DNA from: Dolichospermum flos-aquae CCAP 1403/13F
GTDB taxonomy: Bacteria > Cyanobacteriota > Cyanobacteriia > Cyanobacteriales > Nostocaceae
DNA: 64,000 nucleotides
Assembly: GCF_012516395.1 (NCBI RefSeq)
Contig: NZ_CP051206.1
Location: forward strand, 3,144,501 to 3,208,500
Direction of reading: 5' to 3'
This document shows positions 7,649-36,234 of the stretch, one piece after another. Position 1 is the stretch's first letter. Each line of letters opens with the position of its first letter. A program made the translations under genes and the position numbers. The notes beneath the pieces were generated by a model. That model did no database searches, had not been told where the DNA came from, and worked only from the letters and a program-made list of their open reading frames with translations.

Positions 7649-9085
7649 ATGCAAAAAATTATCATCGAAAACTTCGGTCCAATTCAATATGCAGAAATTG
7701 AAGTTAAGAAAATATTAGTTTTGATTGGTGAACAAGCTAGTGGTAAAAGCACTATTGCTAAATTGATTTATTTTTTCAAGACCATACACGAGGATTTATT
7801 CAGTCAAATTTATCAGGATAAACGTAAATTCCTGAATATTGATAATGATATTTTATCTCCTATCCGACAAAAATTTTATAAATTTTTTGGACCTACCAAT
7901 CACTTAGGTAATTGTAAAATAGTGTTTTATTATAGTTTAGAAAAAGATAAATATATAAAATTAACCTTACAAAGAAATAAAGAAATGGAAATTATATATA
8001 ATAACCTTGTAGATGAGAATTTTAAAAATTCTGCAAGCGCTATTAAACTGAGACTTAGACAGGAATATTTAAATTATAATAGTATTCAATCATTAATTAA
8101 TGAAGAAGAAAAAATAAAATATGCTCAACAGCTTTATAACCTGTTGGACGAATTATTTGAAAGTAAACAAAGGGATTCATTATTTATAATTGCAGGAAGA
8201 AGTGCAACAGTAGGTTATTCTTATCTATTTGAAAAGTATGTATTGGCAAATATTCAAAGTAATTTAGAAAAGAATATTTCAGCTTCTAATTATGAACGTA
8301 ATGTACAAAAAATTGATGAAATTTTAATGCTGGAATTTATGAAAAAAGTCATAAAAAACAGGGATATCTTTAATAAATTTGGAAATATAGAAGAATTGAC
8401 TTTTGGTAGAAACATAACAACAGAAAGAAGAAGAAAATTATCTCTTCTCATACATAAAATTAATGAAATATTAAAAGGTAAATATTATATTGATCCTTAT
8501 GGTAATGAAAAAATCAGATTAGATAATGAAGCTAATGATTATGTTTATCTCTCTAATACTTCGTCAGGACAACAAGAATCTATAAGAATTTTACAAGATA
8601 TTTTTCTGAATATTCTTGATAATACAAAAGTATTAAGAATATTGGAAGAACCAGAAGCTCATTTATTCCCTGTTGCTCAAAAGCAACTAATTGAATTATT
8701 GGCTTTAATGGTAAATCAAAATGATGATAACCAACTAATTATCACCACCCATAGTCCCTATGTTCTCACAGTTTTTAATAATTTACTCTTCGCAAATAGA
8801 GTAGTTGAAAAAAATCCGTCAACAGAATCAGAGGTAGCACAAATAATTCCCCAAGATTCCTGGTTAAGTGCTAAAGATTTTTCTGCTTATTCTTTGGGAA
8901 ATCAATCTGTTAGTGATAGCTTGCGTGGCGACGTAGGAGCAATGGATACTAGTTATTGCGAATCTATTTTTAATCAAGAAAAAGGTACTATTCAACAAAA
9001 TTATTTAGATACGGTTTCCGAAATTTTGGGTGGTGATTTTCAAGCTTTGTACAGTATTCACGCTAAAACTTTCAAAAGAAAATGA
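7649..9085 (+). CDS. AAA/ABC-type ATPase (SMC/OLD-like), candidate defence protein
   Basis: A 478-residue ATPase of the ABC/SMC class. It has Walker A GEQASGKST at 27-35 after the typical FGPIQYAEIEVK start, an ABC signature SSGQQE at 305-310, Walker B with LEEPEAHLFP from 332, and the switch histidine TTHSPYVLT (H368). Only about 100 residues follow, so there is no C-terminal TOPRIM nuclease as in OLD proteins. The ATG at 7649 was chosen because it begins the conserved strand; an ATG at 7571 lies inside the palindromic repeat. The stop overlaps the next start (ATGA), implying translational coupling. Codon use is markedly AT-rich, hinting at transfer. ATPase sensors of this class occur in Septu, PARIS and retron systems. 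Confidence 0.8.
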   Translation: MQKIIIENFGPIQYAEIEVKKILVLIGEQASGKSTIAKLIYFFKTIHEDLFSQIYQDKRKFLNIDNDILSPIRQKFYKFFGPTNHLGNCKIVFYYSLEKDKYIKLTLQRNKEMEIIYNNLVDENFKNSASAIKLRLRQEYLNYNSIQSLINEEEKIKYAQQLYNLLDELFESKQRDSLFIIAGRSATVGYSYLFEKYVLANIQSNLEKNISASNYERNVQKIDEILMLEFMKKVIKNRDIFNKFGNIEELTFGRNITTERRRKLSLLIHKINEILKGKYYIDPYGNEKIRLDNEANDYVYLSNTSSGQQESIRILQDIFLNILDNTKVLRILEEPEAHLFPVAQKQLIELLALMVNQNDDNQLIITTHSPYVLTVFNNLLFANRVVEKNPSTESEVAQIIPQDSWLSAKDFSAYSLGNQSVSDSLRGDVGAMDTSYCESIFNQEKGTIQQNYLDTVSEILGGDFQALYSIHAKTFKRK

Positions 9086-9672
9086 GTAAATTTGAGGATA
9101 TTAAAGAACTTCTATCAACTGCTTTTGATAATTTTTCCGATGTTCTGGAAATTGAAATCAGATCTGAATTTTCCATCATAGACTATCAAGGACAGTCTTT
9201 TATTATTATCAATATAAATTCAGATGACAACACATTTACTATTAAACTAAATGGTGTTGATACTGTTAAAAATGGTTTTGATATCACTAAATTATTTAAT
9301 GTAATTAATGCTAAAGTAGTTGGTTTTATTCCTATTGATGGAAAAAAAGGACTTTTAGGATTTGGTGATTCTCATTGCGATTTTGTATTTTTTGATGAGA
9401 ATGATTTTTGTTTTGTAGAGTTCAAATTGGATGCAACAAGTTTAAGAAAAGTAGATAAAAACCGCGACAAAGCTATTAACCAACTCACTAATACTATTGA
9501 TTTATTTGATAATAAATTAGTTAGAAACTATGCAGGTTTAAATTTAGAAGCTTATGTTTGTACTCCTGAATTTTACCCAAGATTTAATTCAAGCTGGATA
9601 GCATTTGCGAAAGATTTTTTAGAAGAGTATGGTTTTGAACTTTTTGAAACAAATAATAAAATCTGTGAATGA
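9082..9672 (+). CDS. PD-(D/E)XK nuclease-like partner of the ATPase
   Basis: A 196-residue protein I cannot place in a named family. Residues 94-115 read FGDSHCDFVFF then FVEFK, giving a D100 ... E113-x-K115 arrangement on neighbouring predicted strands; a helix with NRDKAINQL (Q134) follows. This is the order of the PD-(D/E)XK core (D, ExK, Q). It starts within the stop codon of the ATPase gene (overlap 4 bp) and is as AT-rich as that gene. I infer that it is the effector nuclease of a two-gene defence module. It lacks the HNH motif of PtuB and does not resemble DUF4435. The function is unproven. Confidence 0.65.
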   Translation: MSKFEDIKELLSTAFDNFSDVLEIEIRSEFSIIDYQGQSFIIININSDDNTFTIKLNGVDTVKNGFDITKLFNVINAKVVGFIPIDGKKGLLGFGDSHCDFVFFDENDFCFVEFKLDATSLRKVDKNRDKAINQLTNTIDLFDNKLVRNYAGLNLEAYVCTPEFYPRFNSSWIAFAKDFLEEYGFELFETNNKICE

Positions 9673-9719: not shown

Positions 9720-9854
9720 CTTTCCTCTCCTTGCGTCGGTGGTTTAGCAACTCCAGAAATCTTTAATTCTTATGCTGGATTAAGCTTGTTACGTGGGAAT
9801 ACTGTAGAAAAGGCTAAACTATTAAACAAGTTTTTAGTCAAAACTCAGAAGTAA
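9720..9854 (+). pseudogene. 3' remnant of an unidentified gene
   Basis: An open frame of 44 codons without a start encodes protein-like sequence including GGLATPEIFNSYAGLSLL and ending KAKLLNKFLVKTQK before a TAA. A TGA at 9717 precedes it. It looks like the surviving end of a gene whose body was lost, perhaps when the ATPase/nuclease pair entered. I do not recognise the family. Confidence 0.45.
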
Positions 9855-12682: not shown

Positions 12683-13057
12683 TCAGTCATCTAATTTAAG
12701 CTTATTTGCTAATTTTTTATCTAACGTCACTAACTCAAGTCCATGATGCTTGGTAGTTGCAGCAATAATAGAATCAGGCAATTTTGTTTTGTGAGTATAT
12801 CTAAAGCTGATAGTCTCATTTTCAATTGCTGGTGTGATCGTTAAATATGTCATACGACTTAATAAAAATACAACAGATTCTTTTTCTGTTGGTGTTATAG
12901 ACGGAAAACTCAATAACTCCATAGGAGTTATTGCACTATAAGCACATTCACCAATTTGAATTTGCTTGTCTTTTAATATCTCCAACACTATTGGATCGCG
13001 TTGCAGCAAACCAATCACTATATTTGTATCTAATAAATACTTAATCCCATTCATCAC
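12683..13057 (-). CDS. vapC: PIN-domain toxin VapC
   Basis: A 124-residue PIN-domain ribonuclease. The acidic active-site residues are visible in KYLLDTNIVIGLL (first Asp), ITPMELLSFP (Glu), KLPDSIIAATTKHH (second Asp) and LELVTLDKKL (last Asp). VapC toxins cut tRNA or rRNA when not bound by antitoxin. The start overlaps the end of the antitoxin gene by 17 bp, the normal arrangement for a vapBC operon. Two ATGs occur back to back (13057, 13054). Confidence 0.88.
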   Translation of the reverse strand: MMNGIKYLLDTNIVIGLLQRDPIVLEILKDKQIQIGECAYSAITPMELLSFPSITPTEKESVVFLLSRMTYLTITPAIENETISFRYTHKTKLPDSIIAATTKHHGLELVTLDKKLANKLKLDD

Positions 13058-13292
13058 GTAATGCTCTTTGTAACTTTAATGGATCTTGATTTTTAAAAGT
13101 TGGAAATTCAGGCAAATCATTAACTAGATCAACTAATAATTGAGATGATTTTACAGTGAGCGGTGTCGAACTGTGTTTTTGTCGCTCCTCCAACAACATT
13201 TTTTCGATAGCTTTCTGTACTAATAGCTGCATATCAGGCATTTCCAAAAGTTGATTACCCAACTCATCAGGTAACTCGATTTTAACTTGCAT
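13041..13292 (-). CDS. vapB: VapB-type antitoxin of the VapC at 12683-13057
   Basis: An 83-residue small protein, MQVKIELPDELGNQL..., with an N-terminal strand-helix pattern typical of DNA-binding antitoxins and a charged C-terminal tail ending LQRALRDEWD. I placed the start at 13292, where AAGGAGGA precedes the ATG at the right distance; an upstream ATG would add 15 hydrophobic residues not seen in such proteins. It is expected to neutralise the downstream VapC and autoregulate the operon. Confidence 0.8.
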   Translation of the reverse strand: MQVKIELPDELGNQLLEMPDMQLLVQKAIEKMLLEERQKHSSTPLTVKSSQLLVDLVNDLPEFPTFKNQDPLKLQRALRDEWD

Positions 13293-13417
13293 AAAATCCT
13301 CCTTAGATTTCCCAAAGATTAACAATAATAGAATCAATAGTTGGTGTTATGTTTGCCATAAATCTATTCATGAGAAATAGAAAAAACCAACAGGATCAAA
13401 AATTTTATATTTTAATT

Positions 13418-13741
13418 TTAATCTGATTCATAATGATAACGAGCTTGTAAAAAATAAACTTTACTTTCTGTGACTTTATAAACTAAACGATGTTCTAAAT
13501 CAATGCGTCGTGACCAAGTATCAGGAGCAATATATTTAAGAGGTTCAGGTTTACCTAAGCCCGTAAACGGTTGACCATCAAGAATATCAGCTACTAAATC
13601 TAATATCTTATCCCCTTTTTTGCGGTCATGATTATACCACCAAGCCAAATCTGCTTTAAAATCAGGACTGAAAATAGGAAAATAACCAGATAATTTTGGC
13701 TCTTCATCATGAGTATCTGGCTTTTTTTTCTTACTACTCAA
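13418..13741 (-). CDS. yoeB: YoeB/Txe family mRNA interferase toxin
   Basis: A 107-residue RelE-superfamily toxin. The YoeB active-site pattern is present: EPLKY, then WSRRIDLEHRLVYKV (arginine), and the C-terminal RYHY (histidine-tyrosine). YoeB cleaves mRNA at the ribosome. It carries about 22 extra N-terminal residues (MSSKKKKPDTHDEEP...) relative to the usual 84; the real start may be an internal codon, or the lysine-rich extension may be genuine. It overlaps the antitoxin gene by 8 bp. Confidence 0.88.
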   Translation of the reverse strand: MSSKKKKPDTHDEEPKLSGYFPIFSPDFKADLAWWYNHDRKKGDKILDLVADILDGQPFTGLGKPEPLKYIAPDTWSRRIDLEHRLVYKVTESKVYFLQARYHYESD

Positions 13742-14015
13742 TTCCTAACTCCTCTTTTAATTCAGCTAATGTTTGAGGAGTTTCTATTGTTGTTTCAGCC
13801 CATTCTAAAGCCCGAAATAACCGTTTAGCATTTTCAGGTGATTTTAATAAATAAACAGACTCTAATAAACTGGAAAGTTCATCTTCGGCAATTAACGCCA
13901 CATTTTTCTGATTACGACGTTTAATTACTATAATTTCCCGTTGGTCACACACCTGATCTAAAATAGTTGCTAAATTTAACCTTGCTTGAGAGTAAGTAGT
14001 TTCTTTGCTTAACAT
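13734..14015 (-). CDS. yefM: YefM/Phd family antitoxin
   Basis: A 93-residue antitoxin beginning MLSKETTYSQARLNLATILDQV, with REIIVIKRRNQKNVALIAEDEL. This is the Phd/YefM DNA-binding fold. The acidic C-terminal part (EWAETTIETPQTLAELKEELGIE) should wrap the YoeB toxin. Two TGTACA boxes lie 18-36 bp upstream of its start and fit the known YefM operator core, so the operon is probably autorepressed. Confidence 0.88.
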   Translation of the reverse strand: MLSKETTYSQARLNLATILDQVCDQREIIVIKRRNQKNVALIAEDELSSLLESVYLLKSPENAKRLFRALEWAETTIETPQTLAELKEELGIE

Positions 14016-19319: not shown

Positions 19320-22300
19320 ATGGATAAAACAAAAATCAAATCTCTTATTTCTCATTTAGGATTTATAGAACAAGAATCGGATATTTTTCAACAAAATTAC
19401 CGTAAAATATATACTAACCACAAAAATTATGTAATTAAAATTAATTTAACCACTGAGAAAATTGATTATGGGGATAAAATTAAAGTAGAAGACGAAACTA
19501 CCTCTAATTTTAGTCAACCTGAGAATTTCGTTGTTTTAGAATGTGTGAATAGACTGTTAGAAAAAGGTTATGAACCTAAACATTTAATATTAGAACGTAA
19601 ATTTCCTTTAGGACGAACTGGTAAAAGTGGAAAATCAGATATTTCTGTTTTTGATAGAGAAGAAAAGTCTTTAATTATCATTGAGTGTAAAACCTGGGGT
19701 AAAGAATATGAAAAAGAAAAGAATCGGATGATAGAAAATGGTGGACAACTATTTTCTTATTTACAACAAGATAAAAATACTCGCTTTTTATGTTTGTATA
19801 CCTCACAAATTCATGATGGTGGTTTACTTGTATATGAGAATTCAATTATCCAAATTAAGGATAGAGAAGAAACTTTAAGATTATTAACAGAAAGTAAGGA
19901 AGAGATAAAAAGCTATAAAGAAGCCAAAACAGCAGAAGAATTATATACAGCTTGGAAAGAAAATTTTAACTGCTATTTTGCACCTAATGGAATTTTTGAT
20001 CCAGAAGTGCAAGCTTATAATCCTGAATATATACCCATTAAGAAAAAAGATTTACAACCCTTTACTGAAGGAGAAGGACGTAAATTATTTAATCAATTTG
20101 AAGAAATCTTACGTCATAATAATATTAGCGATAAATCAAATGCTTTCAACCGCATTTTATCCTTAATTTTATGTAAGATTGTTGATGAACAAAAAAATGA
20201 TAATGATATTACCGATTTTCAAATTATTGAAGGTAAAGATACTCCTGAACAGATACAGGAAAGGTTACAGAAATTATATGCTAAAGGAATGAGAGAATTT
20301 CTGAAAGAAGAAATTGTTTATTATTCTGAGGAATATATTGATACATTAGTTAGTAATTTCCCTATACAAACGACTCAAGAAAGACTTAAACAAATATTAC
20401 GGGAATTAAAATTTTATAGTAATAATGAATTTGCTTTTAAAGAAGTTCACAATGAGAAATTATTTTTGGAAAATGCTAAAGTATTAAATGAAATTATTAC
20501 TTTATTGCAATATAAAAAGTTTAGATATTTTTATAATGATAACAATGACTTAAAATATCAAAAACAATATTTAGGGGATTTCTTTGAACAATTATTAGAT
20601 GCAGGTTATAAACAATCTGAAGGACAGTTTTTTACACCTTTACCTATTGCTAAGTTTATCGTTAAATCCCTGCCTTTGCGAGAAATCATTGAAGCTAAAT
20701 TAAATCAAGAAAGAGTAGATTTTTTACCTTATTTAATTGACTACGCTTGTGGTAGTGGTCATTTTTTAGTAGAAGCGATTGAAGAAATACAAAATATTAT
20801 TGATACAATTAAACCTGAATTTACTAAAGATATTAATAGATATATTAAACAATATCAAGAATCATCAGATTGGGCTGAAAAATTCATTTTTGGAATTGAA
20901 AAAGATTATCGTTTAGCTCGTACTGCAAAAGTAGCTTGTTTTATGAATGGAGACGGACAAGCTAATATTTTCTTCGGAGATGGTTTAGAAGATTATAATG
21001 AAAGAGAGCGTCAACTTGCTGATAGCTATGATGTTGTTATTGCCAATCCTCCTTATTCAATTCATGGATTTAAACCCCATGCTTTAAAATTAAAAGATAA
21101 ATATACACTTTTTGAATCTTTAACCGATAGTTCATCAGAAATTGAAGCTTTATTTATCGAAAGAACTGCTCAATTATTACAAACAGGAGGAAAAACAGGA
21201 ATTATTTTACCGAGTTCTCTTTTAAGTAATACGGGCATTTATGCTCGTGCTAGAGAGATTATCTTACAAAATTTTCTGATTAAAGCTATAGTTGAATTGA
21301 GCGGACAACCAAAAACCTTTATGGCAACAGGAACAAAGACTATAATTTTATTTATGGAAAAGCGAGAGTCTCGCTGGAAACAGGATTATAATTTTGTTGC
21401 AGAAGATTATATTATTAATAACCGAGAACGTCCCCATGATTTTACAGATACCAAAGCTCTATTTAGAAGTTATGTTGACTATCTAGGATTAGATTTTGAT
21501 GATTATAAAACTTTTGTCAGTCGTAATGCTAATGATGGAATAAAAGCTACAGACTGGTATCAAGATTACCGTCACTGGTTTGAAAACGAACCCAGCTTTA
21601 AAAATTTACATAAACGAAGAGATTTTAAAATCTTAACACAAGAGGAACAAGAACAGAGAATTGAAAGATTGTTTTATGAAATAGTATTACCTATTGAGAA
21701 AGATAAATTTTATTATTATTTATTAAGTTATAATCAAGAATTGATCCAGATAAAATCTGGAGATAAAAATCAAGCTCGTGCTTTTTTAGGATATGAATTT
21801 AAAGAAGGAAGACAGGCAGGAATGGAACTTGATAGAGATCAAAAAGGTAATCATAAAACTTTATTATATGATGAAATAGAACAATTTAATCCTGAAAAAG
21901 TAAATTACTATATTTATCAATCTTTTTTAGACAATTTGGAAAGTCCTGTTGATGCTGTTAAGGATTATGTTTCCATCGTTGATTTAGTTGATTGTATTGA
22001 TTTTAAAAGAGTTACGTTTGAAAAACAAATACAATTTATAGAAAAACCTACACTTAAAATTAAATCAAAATATAAACTTGTTACATTTTTGAGTATAGCT
22101 ACTCTTGAATATGGTAGTGCTTTACCTGAAAATCAGAGAATACAAGGTCAATATCCAGTAATGGGTTCTAATGGTATTGTGGGTTATCATAATGAATATT
22201 TGATTCAATCTCCTGCTATCATTTTAGGACGTAAAGGTTCTGCGGGAAAAGTTAATTATATCGGGGAAAACTGTTTTCCTATTGATACTACATTTTATGT

Positions 22301-23129
22301 TAATCTTAAAAGCGAAGATACTTTACCTAAATACTTTTATTACTTACTAAATTCTATTAATTTACAAAGTTTAGTAGCAGGTATAGGAGTTCCAGGACTT
22401 AATAGAAATTTGGTTTATAATATTAAATTACCTTTAACTCCCAAAGAAGTACAAGAACAAATTATTCAAGAAATTGAAGTCTTAGAAATTAGAGAACAAG
22501 AACTAAGAAATAATATTGAGGAATTACAAACAAATATCCAAGAAATATTAAATCATTCCTTTAATACTGCACCCAAAATAAAACTATCTCAAGCAGCATC
22601 TTTAGAAAGAGGTCGTTTTAGTCATCGTCCTAGAAATGCACCCCATTTATATCAAGATGGTACATATCCTTTTATTCAAACAGGAGATGTAGCTAAGGTC
22701 AAGGGAAGAAATATTATCTATTCTCAAACATTAAATGAGGAAGGATTAAAAGTTAGTAAAATATTTGAACCTGAAACTATTTTAATTACAATTGCTGCTA
22801 ATATTGGTAGTACAGCGATTTTAACTTATTCAGCTTGTTTTCCTGATAGTATTGTCAGTATTAAACCTAACGAACAAATGAATATTGATTACTTGGAATA
22901 TTATTTAAGAACTCAACAACAATACTTAAATGATATTGCACCTCAAAAAGCACAAAAGAATATTAATTTAGAAATACTTCGTCCTTTATTGGTTGCTTGT
23001 CCTGAAAAAAATGAACAAGATAGAATTATTAACGAAGTGTTAGATATGGAGAAATATATCCAAAATTATGAACAAGAAATTCAAACTATTCCACAACAAA
23101 AAGAAGCAATATTACAAAAATATTTATAA
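19320..23129 (+). CDS. single-chain restriction-modification enzyme (nuclease, N6-adenine methyltransferase and specificity domains)
   Basis: A 1269-residue fusion. The N-terminal part has a PD-(D/E)XK nuclease of the HsdR-N kind, D107 (SGKSDISVFD) with E122-C-K124 (IIIECKTWGKE). The middle is an HsdM-like N6-adenine methyltransferase: motif I DYACGSGHFLVEA (474-486) and catalytic NPPYS (576-580). The C-terminal third has two HsdS-type target-recognition domains (about 905-1060 and 1080-1250) separated by a helical REQELRNNIEELQTN spacer. This is the layout of type IIG / type I-like RMS enzymes that need no partner. It is AT-rich (accessory origin likely) and is followed by a MITE. Confidence 0.85.
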   Translation: MDKTKIKSLISHLGFIEQESDIFQQNYRKIYTNHKNYVIKINLTTEKIDYGDKIKVEDETTSNFSQPENFVVLECVNRLLEKGYEPKHLILERKFPLGRTGKSGKSDISVFDREEKSLIIIECKTWGKEYEKEKNRMIENGGQLFSYLQQDKNTRFLCLYTSQIHDGGLLVYENSIIQIKDREETLRLLTESKEEIKSYKEAKTAEELYTAWKENFNCYFAPNGIFDPEVQAYNPEYIPIKKKDLQPFTEGEGRKLFNQFEEILRHNNISDKSNAFNRILSLILCKIVDEQKNDNDITDFQIIEGKDTPEQIQERLQKLYAKGMREFLKEEIVYYSEEYIDTLVSNFPIQTTQERLKQILRELKFYSNNEFAFKEVHNEKLFLENAKVLNEIITLLQYKKFRYFYNDNNDLKYQKQYLGDFFEQLLDAGYKQSEGQFFTPLPIAKFIVKSLPLREIIEAKLNQERVDFLPYLIDYACGSGHFLVEAIEEIQNIIDTIKPEFTKDINRYIKQYQESSDWAEKFIFGIEKDYRLARTAKVACFMNGDGQANIFFGDGLEDYNERERQLADSYDVVIANPPYSIHGFKPHALKLKDKYTLFESLTDSSSEIEALFIERTAQLLQTGGKTGIILPSSLLSNTGIYARAREIILQNFLIKAIVELSGQPKTFMATGTKTIILFMEKRESRWKQDYNFVAEDYIINNRERPHDFTDTKALFRSYVDYLGLDFDDYKTFVSRNANDGIKATDWYQDYRHWFENEPSFKNLHKRRDFKILTQEEQEQRIERLFYEIVLPIEKDKFYYYLLSYNQELIQIKSGDKNQARAFLGYEFKEGRQAGMELDRDQKGNHKTLLYDEIEQFNPEKVNYYIYQSFLDNLESPVDAVKDYVSIVDLVDCIDFKRVTFEKQIQFIEKPTLKIKSKYKLVTFLSIATLEYGSALPENQRIQGQYPVMGSNGIVGYHNEYLIQSPAIILGRKGSAGKVNYIGENCFPIDTTFYVNLKSEDTLPKYFYYLLNSINLQSLVAGIGVPGLNRNLVYNIKLPLTPKEVQEQIIQEIEVLEIREQELRNNIEELQTNIQEILNHSFNTAPKIKLSQAASLERGRFSHRPRNAPHLYQDGTYPFIQTGDVAKVKGRNIIYSQTLNEEGLKVSKIFEPETILITIAANIGSTAILTYSACFPDSIVSIKPNEQMNIDYLEYYLRTQQQYLNDIAPQKAQKNINLEILRPLLVACPEKNEQDRIINEVLDMEKYIQNYEQEIQTIPQQKEAILQKYL

Positions 23130-31095: not shown

Positions 31096-33273
31096 TTACT
31101 CACTATCTCCAATATCACGTTTAGGTGGACGCTTGTAAGTAAAAGTAAAACTCTCTCCACTAGCTATGACCTTTCGCATTTCCTCATACATAGGATAACT
31201 ACCAACACCGCTTAAATTAGCCCAACCTCGCGCCCTGGTTAAAGCCACAAATAACTGGTTGCGGAAATTCACATCATTTTCATTCCGCGCTACATTATCA
31301 AAACCCACCACATAAACCATATCCGCTTCATGTCCTTTAGCGCGAGTAATCCGTGATACCGTTACACCACCTTCGTGCCAAAATTTATCAGGATCATGAT
31401 TGGGATATTGGGGAACTAAATCATTTAACTTTAAAGCTGTAGGGATATAAACATCAATGTCATATTCCATTAAAAAGCCAGCTATCTGGGTTTCTAATTC
31501 CATTGCTTCATAGGTAGATCCTAAAATTACTACTAAAATATCTCGGCTGGGGTTAAGTCCGTCATGGACAATATTGTGCATAATTTTCTCAGCCAAAGCC
31601 TTCATTTCTTCCTGACGAGAACCATAAGTTTCAAATTCTAATACAGGTTTTCCCCAGATTTCTGATATGGGATTTGGTGAGTTTTCTGGCGGACGGCGCA
31701 ATGTAATTTGTCTACCAGAAATAAATTTACTATCGCCGACAACTTCATAACCAATTTCCTTCCATGCTTTTTGATTTGTGAGTCCTGTCAGCATTCCTTC
31801 TGGACGTAACAAACCCATACCAATAGCGTGAGCAGATGTGAGAATTTGACCTGGTGTACGATAGCAACGGCGCATAATTTCTGATTTTTTAATGCCACCT
31901 TTATAGCTACCAGTTACCGCCTTATTAAGATTAGTATCTATCCCAAATAATTCTGGTGCGGTAGGAATTTTTAAACTATCTAAACTTTGAGCTTCGTCAT
32001 AAGCCCAAATCAAGCGTTTTTGTTCTGGGTGTTCAGAATCAGCAGGTCGTAAAGATTGATAAGCTAACCAATAAATAGCTTGTTTGTCCTGATATTTTAA
32101 ATCATCTTCGGCTACTAAATCTTGACCTTCATCAATTAAGATGGCATCAAACATTGGTTCAATAGTAATTTCTTCCAATAGCCGTTTACTTAAATCTATT
32201 AAACCTCGATTTGGCTGTCTTTCATTGGTGTTTTGTACAGTTCCTGGTCTTTTACCATGATGTTCACAAATAATGCGATATAAACCTGGTTGTTCCTTTG
32301 CTCCCCAAGCATGAAACACTTGTAATTTAGAGTTTGTTTTTGGGTCATAGTGCATTTCACCACAACTAAAACGCTTTATTCATTGGTCGAGTAAACCAAT
32401 CATTAAATCATATAAAGAACGGGTAAAAAATACTAAAGCAATATCCCAATCTGGATGTTTCAGGTGCATATGTGCGGCTTTTTGACATAGTAAAACAGTT
32501 TTTCCTGAGCCGGCAATACCGCGAATGCGCTGAGGACCGGGGGGAATTTCTTTACCAATATGTTCTTGTTGTAAATCAATCTCATAGAGTTTTTCTCGTA
32601 AACTATCAATGACATTAGAACGGGTTTTCCCAGTGGTATTGACTTGATTTCGGGGAGGTTTCCGCAATACAGGTGTACCGCCTATCACTGATAATAATAA
32701 TTCCCAATTTTTAGCTTCTAAATCTGCTCCAGGAATGACAATATTAGCTTGTTGAATTTGTTCAATTAAAGCAACTTTTCCTAATTGGTCTTGAAATATA
32801 ATTGGCGGAATATCTGGTAATTGGTCAAAGCCTTTTTGCTGCCATTGTTCTGTGGTAATTTGCGGTAATGCAACTATGGCTCTACCATTAACTTTTCGCC
32901 AAAGTGCTGTTTCTCTATCACTATATGATATTAATGTTCGCAGTTGATGTTCTGCTTGTTGGTAGGGATTTATTTCTGTGGTGTCAGTATTTTGCAACTG
33001 CCATTGTTGACCATTAATAGCGGCAATTTGGTCAATATTTATAGATTTGACTTCAATTACAACTACACCAAATTCTCTATCAACTATTAAGATATCCGGC
33101 TCTTTTCTAATTTCTCCAGCTTTGGAAAAAATGGGATAACGCCAATACCCAATGCAGTTTCTATCAGCAAAGGTACTACGGAAAGCGTCCCAAACCTTCT
33201 GTTCTCCGTCTTGATTTTTGATTGCTTCGGTGGTGATAAACTTGCTACCCTGTTCTTCTATGCCAACAGCCAT
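31096..33273 (-). pseudogene. NERD-domain UvrD-like helicase, interrupted by one in-frame TGA
   Basis: A 725-codon frame with a single stop at 32380-32382. The N-terminal 297 residues hold a NERD nuclease-related domain (EPDILIVDREFGVVVIEVKSI, residues about 58-78) and end with Walker A, GIAGSGKTVLLCQKA. After the TGA the same frame continues IKRFSCGEMHYDPKT... with the remaining SF1 helicase motifs: FDAILIDEGQDL (Walker B), CYRTPGQILTSAH, VSRITRAKGHEADMVYVV, and FVALTRARGWANL. The codon before the stop is Gln and Ile follows, so the stop probably replaced a Trp codon (TGG to TGA). The helicase is split between motif I and the rest, so neither piece should work unless the stop is read through. 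Confidence 0.8.
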
Positions 33274-33606: not shown

Positions 33607-36234
33607 TCATTCAGCAACACCCACCTGTAATAAATCCAAACCTTGGGCAAAAATCTCATCAATTGGTAACATTTGCCCGGCTTCAGTCATGAATTTATGG
33701 TCTTTTGTAGCGCGAATAATTGCCCCATTTTCTAACAAATATTCATAAACTTCTTGCTGTCCCCGATTATGCCATTGGGCAATTGATTGAGTATAAAGCA
33801 TTCCATTACTATCAATAGTATAGACTTTACATTCAATTTGTTTTTCAACAATTTCCCCAATCTCTAAAAAACCATATTCAACAGTTAAAATTTCTGTGTC
33901 ATAACTTAAACAGTATTCGGCAAACTTCAACATATCCCCAAATAAATGTTCAGAAACTTGGGGTATTACACCATTTTTTGCCGAACCATCAATAAAATTT
34001 TGCTTTTGTTTCTCCATTTCTGATACTTTCTTTTTACCCATAGCCCGACGCAGTAAATCAGCTTGTCCTAAGCTATAACCAGCCATATCTTGAGCAATTT
34101 TCATAATTTGCTCTTGATAAACCATGATTCCGTAGGTTTCATTTAAGATTGGTTCTAAAATTTGAGTATCATATTCAATTTCTTCTCGTCCATGTTTACG
34201 ATTAATAAATTTAGGAATTAATCCTGCATCTAATGGTCCTGGGCGATAAAGTGCTAAAATGGAAGAAATATCTTCAATGTTTGAAGGTTTTAAATCTCGG
34301 ACTATCTGTTTCATTCCTGAAGATTCTAATTGAAATATCCCTTCTAAATCACCTGCTTCTAATAATGAATAAGCTTTAGCAACGTCTTTTGGTAAGTTAG
34401 TATGATCACCTTTAGCTAATATTTTTTGTGCTTTTCTTTCCTGTCCGGTAATTTCATCAGGATCAATTCGATATCCTTTACTTTGTTCAATTAAATCAAT
34501 GGTTTTTTGAATTAGGGTTAAGTTCCGCAAACCCAAAAAGTCCATTTTTAATAATCCCAATGATTCCAAATCTTCCATGAAATATTGAGTAATTACAGAA
34601 CCATCATTATTTCGTTGTAGAGGAACAAGTTCATCTAATGGTTCTGCGGAAATAACGACACCAGCAGCATGAACCCCGAAGGTTTTGTTAGTTCCTTCAA
34701 TTCGCATGGCCATGTCAATCCAGCGCCGTACAGTGGGATCATTATCATATTTGGCTTTAAATTCTGGTTCGGGAGTTTCATCGGAAATCATCACTTTCAG
34801 TTTTGTGGGTTTACCCCGAACTACAGGAATCATTTTCGCCATTTTGTCAGAATCCCCATAGGGAATGTCTAACACTCTAGCGACATCTTTTAACACTGCT
34901 TTTGATGTCAGACGGTTAAAAGTGATGATTTGGGCAACTCTATCAACACCATATTTATTAGTTACATAATCAATGACTTGATCTCGTTTATCAATGCAGA
35001 AATCTGTATCAATATCCGGCATTGATTTGCGTTCAGGATTGAGAAATCTTTCAAATAATAAGCCATGATGTACGGGGTCAATATTCGTAATTTTCATGGC
35101 ATAAGCTACTAAAGAACCTGCCGCAGAACCCCGTCCTGGACCGACGGGAATATTATTATCTCGCGCAAATTTGATGTAGTCCCACACTACTAAAAAGTAG
35201 GTGGAAAATCCCATTTGTTGAATCATTTTTAATTCATATTCCAATCTTTCTTTATAGACTGGATCTACTTCGTTGCGAGATTTGCGTTTTAATCTTTCTA
35301 AAAGTCCGTCCCAAGCAACTTCTTCTGCATAGGTATCTGCTGTATGTCCTGAAGGTATTTGGGGTGTGGGAATTTGGGGATCACCCATGATGTGATAAGG
35401 TTCAACTTTATCAGCAATTTCTTCTGTGGTGGCTATGGCTTCAGCAATGACATCATCGGGTAAATGGTCACGGAATAACTGGCGCATTTCCTCTGATGAT
35501 TTGAGGTATTCTGTGCCGCTATATCGCATTCTTTTATCTTCGCTGATGAGTTTGCCGGTTTGAATACATAGCAAGGCATCATGGGATTCTACATCAAAAC
35601 AAGAAATAAAATGGGAGTCATTTGTAGCAATAAATTTAATCCCTAATTCTCTGGCAATTTTAACAATTTCTACATTCACAATCCGGTCTTCTTGTGAACC
35701 ATGATCTTGAATTTCTAAATAAAAATCTTCTCCAAATACATCTTTATACCATTTGGCAACTTTTCTGGCTGCATCTGGCCGATTACTCAAAATTGCTTGG
35801 GGAATTTCTCCCCCTAAACAAGCGCTAGTAACTATTAAACCTTCACGATATTGTTTGAGTAAATCTTTGTTAATACAAGGACGGGAAAAAATGCCTTTAC
35901 CTTGTACTCCTTGAAGATGGGAAATTGTGGTGATTTTAACTAGGTTTTTATAGCCTTGGGTGTTTTTTGCTAATACGACTTGATGATATTTGGGACGGCG
36001 TTCTTGTTTGTCAATATCACCATTTAGGATATACATTTCGTTGCCAATTATTGGCTTTATAGTCTTACTGCGGCAGATTTTAATGAGTTCAACTGCCCCA
36101 TACATGACACCATGATCTGTGAGGGCGATCGCTTTCATTCCTAATGCGATCGCTCGATCTACCAATTCTGGTAGTTGACTAGCACCATCAAGCAAGCTGT
36201 AATCACTGTGAATATGTAAAGGAACAAATGACAT
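33607..36234 (-). CDS. dnaE-N: DNA polymerase III alpha subunit, N-terminal half fused to split intein N-part
   Basis: An 875-residue protein: 774 residues of DnaE followed by a 101-residue intein half. The PHP domain starts at [15 protein letters not shown], polymerase motifs include [15 protein letters not shown] and [20 protein letters not shown] (catalytic Asp residues), and the extein ends FAEY. The C-terminal DnaE half is encoded elsewhere with its own intein C-part, and the two proteins trans-splice to give the replicative polymerase, as established for cyanobacterial DnaE. The start ATG at 36234 follows directly from [12 protein letters not shown]. Confidence 0.95.
33610..33912 (-). 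other. DnaE split intein, N-terminal half
   Basis: Residues 775-875 of DnaE-N. Cys1 ([14 protein letters not shown]) is the splicing nucleophile, and the block B region [13 protein letters not shown] carries the conserved His. The sequence closely follows the Npu DnaE intein in pattern. It ends ...[10 protein letters not shown]. The complementary half must lie outside this window. Confidence 0.93.

What the first reader, a model, noticed from the sequence alone, without database searches (positions are those of the whole stretch)
7649..9672. Two-gene ATPase plus PD-(D/E)XK-like nuclease unit, a candidate defence system
An ABC/SMC-type ATPase (Walker A GEQASGKST, signature SSGQQE, LEEPEAHLFP, TTHSPYV) without a TOPRIM domain is coupled by an ATGA overlap to a 196-residue protein with a D...ExK...Q arrangement (D100, E113, K115, Q134). 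Both are AT-rich compared with ribF and moxR around them. Septu uses an HNH partner, Gabija a UvrD partner and PARIS a DUF4435 partner; this effector resembles none of them. I infer an abortive-infection-like sensor/effector pair.
Basis: partly seen in the sequence, partly recalled or inferred. Interest (0 to 1): 0.72.

Follow-up and report, generated by a model that had tools for sequence, protein, structure and literature searches.

The report
Two-gene ATPase-nuclease phage defence pair
A cyanobacterium carries a two-gene unit, an ATPase switch and a small nuclease, that looks like a kind already shown elsewhere to stop phages by shutting down the infected cell; the middle of its ATPase appears to have been swapped between related strains like a cassette.

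Summary
In detail: an OLD-type ABC ATPase (A, 7649-9085, 478 aa) overlaps by ATGA a 196-aa protein (B, 9082-9672). In one sequence the D/ExK/Q pattern means little (16 of 47 ORFs match a loose version), but D86, E113, K115 and Q134 are invariant in 22 diverse relatives and D100 is kept in 20. B is probably a PD-(D/E)XK nuclease; the fold search alone was not significant. The claim that it resembles no known system is wrong: PADLOC holds both genes as candidate PDC-M29, and published WonAB (OLD-ABC ATPase plus PD-(D/E)xK nuclease, abortive infection) has the same layout. It is a new member of a known kind, beside ribF and/or moxR in 13 genomes of its family. Unexpected: ATPase residues ~50-300, between Walker A and the ABC signature, have another history than the rest. 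Window versus G006: dS 0.80 there, 0.13 in the ATPase C-part; versus G421: 0.41 there, 0.63-0.86 in C-part, B, ribF and moxR. An AU test rejects a shared tree. I read this as exchange of a sensor cassette; that role is inferred.

The parts
7649..9085 (+). Gene A: OLD-type ABC ATPase, 478 aa, putative sensor/switch
   Evidence: AAA_15 6.8e-28; PDC-M29A 1.2e-31, AriA model 1.6e-42, PD-T4-4_A 2e-17; alignment A3
7727..7753 (+). Walker A (GEQASGKST, K33)
   Evidence: G32 and K33 invariant in 24 sequences
7799..8518 (+). ATPase residues 51-290: variable insert region with its own phylogeny; putative exchangeable sensor cassette
   Evidence: dS contrasts, AU test
8561..8578 (+). ABC signature SSGQQE (305-310)
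   Evidence: kept in many but not all of the 24 ATPases aligned
8642..8662 (+). Walker B LEEPEAH, E334
   Evidence: E334 and E336 invariant in 24 sequences
8744..8761 (+). H-loop TTHSPY, H368
   Evidence: T366, T367, H368, S369, Y371 invariant in 24 sequences
8906..9082 (+). ATPase C-terminal extension (residues 420-478, NYLDTVSEILGGDF); putative docking surface for B
   Evidence: extends beyond the AAA domain and is alignable in A3; docking inferred from the WonAB model described in PMC12137116
9082..9672 (+). Gene B: 196-aa PD-(D/E)XK-like nuclease, putative effector
   Evidence: PDC-M29B 2.2e-9; alignments A1, A2, A4; hhalign to viral-contig partners 94.4%, E 9.1e-8
9082..9306 (+). B N-terminal extension (about residues 1-75), predicted small beta-barrel, without counterpart in the 140-150 aa relatives
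   Evidence: alignments, model (pLDDT 53-89 by blocks here), weak Tudor/SH3-like Foldseek matches
9337..9483 (+). B putative active site: D86, D100, E113-x-K115, Q134
9746..9772 (+). 27-base relic copy of the ribF 3' end between B and moxR, trace of a local rearrangement
   Evidence: 88.9% over 27 bases; 20-23 base copies in the other 4 genomes tested with this gene order

Best explanation
This is a chromosomal WonAB-type anti-phage pair of Dolichospermum and relatives. A, an OLD-type ABC ATPase without a TOPRIM nuclease, dimerises on ATP, probably holds the small nuclease B through its C-terminal extension, and senses infection with the long insert region between Walker A and the ABC signature. 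On sensing, B (PD-(D/E)XK active site D86/D100/E113-K115/Q134) is activated and cuts a nucleic acid, so that the cell stops before the phage is assembled. In this lineage the insert region is exchanged between alleles by homologous recombination through the conserved ends of the gene, which would change what is sensed while core and effector stay. Shown here: pairing, motifs, active-site conservation, homology of B to other ATPase-coupled proteins of this type, different history of the insert. Inferred: defence, dimerisation, docking, sensing by the insert, activation, and the substrate (DNA or RNA).
For: PADLOC profile matches for both genes. In 15 of 15 intact copies A and B overlap by 4 bases. 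Search from the ATPase side: 18 of 217 family genomes match the insert region; 15 of them also have a B match, G523 has a sibling ATPase with its own B-like gene, G077 a shortened A without B, and G561 no such ATPase in the stretch read. Among viral contigs, 18 of 76 ATPase ORFs of 330 aa or more have a B-like gene next, 21 an EFKEG-type partner, 10 HNH, 1 UvrD, 26 other or none. In an ATPase tree of 96 tips, 46 of the 48 tips with a B-like partner fall in one 52-tip clade with the window (support 0.87). Active-site residues conserved. WonAB with the same layout protects by abortive infection, and ATPase-motif and nuclease variants abolish it (PMC12137116 sections 7 and 8). Spacing is similar: window K33, R184, E334, H368 against WonA K34, R182, E300, H333. 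Insert exchange.
Against: No phage experiment exists for this pair. WonA and WonB sequences were not at hand, so direct homology was not tested. Foldseek gave no PDB match with E below 0.001 and many of the rows shown are not nucleases; BFVD likewise. B has no Pfam match. D100 is replaced in 2 of 22 relatives. The locus sits beside ribF-moxR rather than in an obvious defence island. G077 keeps a shortened A without B. Half-gene controls, ribF and moxR included, also show some conflict, and B's halves disagree with each other. Two sibling families do not show a clear insert pattern.
Confidence: 0.75

Rival explanations
1. A two-gene toxin-antitoxin-like addiction unit: A restrains B, and loss of the unit is punished; phage defence is not its main role.
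For: A nuclease-like protein with an adjacent partner; decayed copies in several genomes; WonA ATPase mutants lose WonB in the published system.
Against: The antitoxin would be a 478-aa ABC ATPase. Related pairs lie on viral contigs, and the best studied one is a defence system. In L019 (the same place as L192) an ORF with most of B survives the loss of most of A, which is hard if B alone kills.
Confidence: 0.1
2. A PARIS variant: the ATPase is AriA and B replaces AriB.
For: Best PADLOC hit of A is an AriA model, 1.6e-42.
Against: That AriA model has nearly the length of Pfam AAA_15 (373 against 374) and looks generic (inference). B matches no AriB model among the PADLOC families listed and no DUF4435; its relatives form a separate D/ExK/Q family.
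Confidence: 0.04
3. A DNA-repair or chromosome-maintenance ATPase-nuclease pair, RecF/Rad50-like, with a housekeeping role beside ribF-moxR.
For: Syntenic across genera of the family; ABC/SMC-type ATPase.
Against: Patchy: 18 of 217 family genomes have a B match. Four of 16 genus genomes have ribF and moxR within 1 kb with no pair between. Several copies are broken. Relatives are carried on viral contigs.
Confidence: 0.06

Closest known systems
WonAB (V. cholerae WASA-1 prophage; PMC12137116)
   Same: OLD-type ABC ATPase without TOPRIM, followed by a small PD-(D/E)xK nuclease; Walker, R, E and H positions at similar spacing; C-terminal ATPase extension
   Different: Window B has an N-terminal extension (K115 against K71 in WonB); E334 lies further from R184 than E300 from R182, so a longer second insert; chromosomal beside ribF-moxR, not on a prophage; untested
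PDC-M29 (PADLOC-DB candidate)
   Same: Both proteins match the profiles (1.2e-31 and 2.2e-9). The same genome has a closer PDC-M29 pair with a broken B (L074)
   Different: B is distant: 35.7 bits, against 220-247 bits for the eight best PDC-M29B matches in the phylum sample
PD-T4-4 (E. coli)
   Same: ATPase matches over most of its length (2e-17); ATPase plus PD-(D/E)XK layout (passages of PMC10952713)
   Different: Window B does not match PD-T4-4_B
Septu, Gabija, PARIS, OLD
   Same: ATPase models of the first three and Old match A
   Different: Their partners are HNH, UvrD or DUF4435 (the last recalled), or the ATPase carries TOPRIM; none of these is found in the window pair

Membership tests
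WonAB / OLD-ABC ATPase + Novel REase | ABC ATPase motifs and no TOPRIM | tested here: met
   Walker A, signature, Walker B, H-loop present, no TOPRIM match; Q-loop and D-loop were not examined
WonAB / OLD-ABC ATPase + Novel REase | Small PD-(D/E)xK nuclease encoded directly downstream, active-site residues conserved | tested here: met
   the fold itself is only weakly supported
WonAB / OLD-ABC ATPase + Novel REase | C-terminal ATPase extension that docks the nuclease | tested here: inconclusive
   extension present; docking not modelled
WonAB / OLD-ABC ATPase + Novel REase | Direct sequence homology to WonA and WonB | not tested
   WonAB sequences not at hand
WonAB / OLD-ABC ATPase + Novel REase | Both genes needed; abortive infection | not testable with these tools
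   needs phage challenge
PDC-M29 | Adjacent matches to PDC-M29A and PDC-M29B | tested here: met
   PADLOC's own cut-offs are not shown by the tool, and B scores only 35.7 bits
PD-T4-4 | PD-T4-4_B partner | tested here: not met
   no match of window B up to E 1; 2 of 22 members of alignment A2 match weakly, best 0.0063
PARIS | AriB (DUF4435) partner | tested here: not met
   no such match of B
Septu | HNH partner PtuB | tested here: not met
   no such match of B
Gabija / OLD | TOPRIM in the ATPase protein; UvrD partner for Gabija | tested here: not met
   no such match of A or B

The most novel reading that the evidence does not exclude
Residues ~50-300 of the ATPase are an exchangeable specificity cassette: natural strains swap this putative phage-sensing module by recombination in the conserved arms (Walker A side; signature to C-terminus), much as type I restriction systems swap target-recognition domains (recalled), while the nuclease effector stays. 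This would point to the unknown sensor of WonAB-type systems.
Probability: 0.4. Interest if true: 0.65.

Novelty: new member of a known kind. Interest (0 to 1): 0.42.

Why it matters
What the ATPase sensor of WonAB recognises is unknown, and its authors obtained no escape mutants. A natural series of alleles that differ mainly in one segment would let the sensor be mapped: swap the segment and ask whether phage range follows. Otherwise the pair adds a cyanobacterial branch, with an extra N-terminal domain on the nuclease, to a known kind of system.

Tried and rejected
Single-sequence fold of B failed (pLDDT 40.7); the 24-sequence alignment gave pLDDT 77.7 and pTM 0.71. Foldseek against PDB: 789 matches with E up to 10, none up to 0.001; the best is VC1899 (1xmx, E 9e-3, TM 0.20). 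Among the 50 rows shown are enzymes I recall as PD-(D/E)XK (BspD6I subunits, FokI, arenavirus cap-snatching endonucleases, Can2) and Tudor/SH3-like barrels, the latter fitting the N-terminal extension, but also many unrelated proteins. BFVD gave nothing useful. No relative of B on plasmids at E 1e-5; none in viral contigs from the close alignment or from the L096 partner; the viral relatives were reached through the ATPase (the best 80 of 126). No PDB sequence match for the B profile up to E 5; A matches one OLD-family structure weakly (6p74, 6.5e-4). NCBIfam and PHROGs list Shiga-toxin A-subunit models for B at E 0.07-0.09 and 12-13.5 bits, against cut-offs of 730 and 650 for the two NCBIfam models: rejected as chance. 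PARIS, Septu and Gabija membership rejected on the partner gene. The idea that low GC shows recent acquisition was dropped: the pair is syntenic across genera. Insert exchange as a general trait of sibling families was not supported: no clear pattern in 7 PDC-M29 loci or in two pairs of shorter systems. Positive selection not shown: median dN over median dS is 0.37 in the insert and 0.10, 0.14 and 0.27 in ATPase N-part, C-part and B (78 pairs of 13 genomes). The figure 36 of 39 cyanobacterial ATPases with a B-like neighbour is not used as evidence of co-occurrence, because most of those loci were fetched around B matches and some genomes are held twice; its three misses are L021 and L074 (B broken) and L095 (a 307-aa partner that the profile does not match).

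Full report
1. What is there. A matches Pfam AAA_15 at 6.8e-28 and no TOPRIM model; B matches no Pfam family. Motifs of A: Walker A 27-35 with K33, R184 in IAGRS, SSGQQE 305-310, E334, H368. GC is 27.3% (A) and 27.1% (B) against 39.4% (ribF) and 43.5% (moxR). The genome is a 5.2-Mb assembly; the closest named B match is in a Dolichospermum (93%). That its family is the Nostocaceae is recalled.

2. Is the nuclease call sound? From one sequence, no: a loose D-ExK-Q pattern occurs in 16 of 47 ORFs of 130 aa or more in the window. From relatives, yes. In 13 close B proteins the region is nearly invariant. In 22 diverse B proteins (16 to 79% identity to the window), chosen for length and non-redundancy from the loci, D86, C99, E113, K115, Q134 and P166 are invariant and D100 is kept in all but two. 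In 24 that include 16 from viral contigs, D86, D100, E113, K115, Q134 and P166 are invariant; those 16 were picked by eye, so this second result is partly selected. The layout (D, then D, then E-x-K, then Q) is that of PD-(D/E)XK enzymes (recalled). Of 17 Pfam families that single members match at chance-level E-values the best is HSDR_N (0.0057), and Shedu SduA_C is listed at 0.12; PADLOC lists HEC-02B (0.0017) and Cas4 (0.016) once each, beside unrelated ones. Profile-profile comparison of 13 close B proteins with 17 partners, 16 from viral contigs and one from a fecal phage record, gives 94.4% and E 9.1e-8 over residues 76-192; against the EFKEG-type partners only 8.3%. The AlphaFold2 model (24 sequences, mean pLDDT 77.7, pTM 0.71) has an N-terminal small beta-barrel and a mixed alpha/beta core. 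Foldseek found no PDB match up to E 0.001; weak rows include PD-(D/E)XK enzymes, Tudor/SH3-like barrels and unrelated proteins. The fold is therefore likely, not proven.

3. Pairing and distribution. In the window and 14 other genomes with intact copies (15 of 15), A and B overlap by four bases. In the family, 18 of 217 genomes have a B match; with the PDC-M29B profile, 26 of 386 genomes of the phylum sample do, sibling families included. From the ATPase side, 18 of 217 genomes match the insert region: 15 of these have a B match; G523 has a sibling ATPase with a B-like gene behind it; G077 has, in the order ribF-moxR-A, a shortened A (396 aa) without B; in G561 no related ATPase was found in the 6.5 kb read. 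Broken or partial copies: G014 keeps part of B and no A was found in the 8 kb read, G029 is in pieces, G420 has lost most of A, G569 keeps fragments, G360 has a B with three stops. The window's genome has further related ATPase pairs: L074 (PDC-M29, B broken), L094, and L095 with a 307-aa partner. Among the 80 viral loci kept (best of 126), 76 ATPase ORFs of 330 aa or more had as neighbour a B-like gene (18), an EFKEG-type protein (21), HNH (10), UvrD (1), other or none (26); HNH and UvrD were called by rough patterns. In a FastTree of 96 ATPases, rooted at midpoint, 46 of the 48 with a B-like partner lie in one 52-tip clade with the window (support 0.87). Partner type thus largely follows ATPase phylogeny.

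4. Locus history. Two gene orders occur among the 13 intact copies of the family. ribF-AB-moxR: G000, G005, G006, G007, G010, and G009, where moxR is about 17 kb away on the same contig. ribF-moxR-AB: G011, G119, G421, G422, G539, G559 (moxR in pieces), and G002, where ribF is not in the stretch read. In G004, G012, G013 and G015 ribF and moxR lie within 1 kb of each other without the pair. In five of five genomes of the first order that were tested (G009 was not), the B-moxR spacer carries a 20-27 base copy of the genome's own ribF 3' end (no control on the other order), so the pair may have come to lie between the two genes through a local duplication. The outgroup copies G268 and G270 show neither ribF nor moxR within the 10 kb read. 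The pair is therefore long resident and repeatedly lost, not a recent arrival.

5. The unexpected result. ATPase residues 51-290 do not share the history of the rest. Pairwise dS (NG86), given as insert / ATPase C-part / B / ribF: window-G006 0.80 / 0.13 / 0.40 / 0.51; window-G009 0.86 / 0.20 / 0.21 / 0.28; window-G421 0.41 / 0.68 / 0.63 / 0.86. Without ribF: G009-G007 0.04 / 0.20 / 0.28; G009-G005 0.71 / 0.21 / 0.04. The first 50 codons give 0.20, 0.32, 0.46, 0.11 and 0.11 for these five pairs, so for window-G421 they are close to the insert (a short stretch). Window-G006 also shows the reverse: ATPase ends more alike than ribF, as if homogenised. Window and G421 are each other's nearest in the insert tree (ultrafast bootstrap 100), while in the core+B tree G421 joins G422 (100) and the window joins G009 and G005 (99) (13 copies plus 2 outgroups). 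Insert data on the core, B and core+B trees lose 464, 533 and 532 log-likelihood units (AU p at most 6.7e-8); core data on the insert tree lose 258, B data 427. Core and B also disagree, more mildly: core data on the B tree lose 38 (AU 0.002), B data on the core tree 84. In 30-codon windows the borders lie about codons 45-60 and 300-316, beyond Walker A and at the ABC signature. Controls: splitting single genes in halves also gives conflict, but less: ribF 8 and 23, moxR 43 and 18, ATPase C-part 33 and 28, insert 41 and 22, B 106 and 37 (shorter stretches, and for ribF and moxR partly other genomes, so not strictly comparable). Recombination is thus common at this locus, B included, and the insert is the extreme case. 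Median dN over median dS is 0.37 in the insert, 0.10 and 0.14 in the ATPase ends, 0.27 in B: looser, with no sign of positive selection on average. Sibling families show no clear pattern (7 PDC-M29 loci and two pairs).

6. How it works. WonAB (Nat Microbiol 2025, PMC12137116; passages, sections 7 and 8 read in full) is an OLD-type ABC ATPase plus a PD-(D/E)xK nuclease. [quoted passage not shown] A second paper summarises this and leaves the trigger open (PMC12409358, passages). The window pair has the same parts at similar spacing, and a C-terminal ATPase extension. I infer the same sensor-switch-effector logic. The substrate is open: WonAB does not simply degrade DNA, and Septu, whose PtuA model also matches A (4.4e-11), is reported to cut tRNA-Tyr (PMC13096335, abstract start in a listing only), so RNA cleavage is possible.

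7. Known or new. PADLOC lists both genes as PDC-M29; no held paper uses that name in its main text, and WonAB appears in two held papers. Krishnan et al. 2020, which predicted such operons, is not held and is known to me only through. One search (listing only) showed no paper on exchange of the ATPase insert, which is a weak negative. Verdict: a new member of a known kind, with a lineage-specific N-terminal domain on B and an unusual pattern of exchange in A.

Noticed in passing
window 19320-23129 (+): AT-rich 1269-aa type IIG restriction-methyltransferase fusion (PADLOC REase_MTase_IIG 1.4e-287).
   Followed up: partly
window 31096-33273 (-): NERD nuclease-related domain and UvrD-like helicase in two neighbouring ORFs that match consecutive parts of one PADLOC helicase model; looks like one gene split in two.
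   Followed up: no
window 12683-14015 (-): Two toxin-antitoxin-like pairs close to the finding: a PIN-domain protein with a small neighbour that has no Pfam match, and YoeB with Phd/YefM.
   Followed up: no
window 33607-36234 (-): DnaE N-terminal part ending in an intein-like stretch (Intein_splicing 1.7e-4, below its cut-off), as in the split DnaE intein of cyanobacteria (recalled).
   Followed up: no
L074:5207-5846 (own genome 2.25 Mb): A PDC-M29 pair in the same genome whose nuclease gene is interrupted.
   Followed up: no
L184:4914-4986: In G015 a moxR fragment (75% identical) lies between ribF and the full moxR, hinting at an old tandem duplication at this locus.
   Followed up: no
L097:497-2555: A 4.5-kb E. 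coli plasmid carries a distant AAA ATPase followed by a 210-aa protein with a C-D...D-x-K pattern.
   Followed up: no
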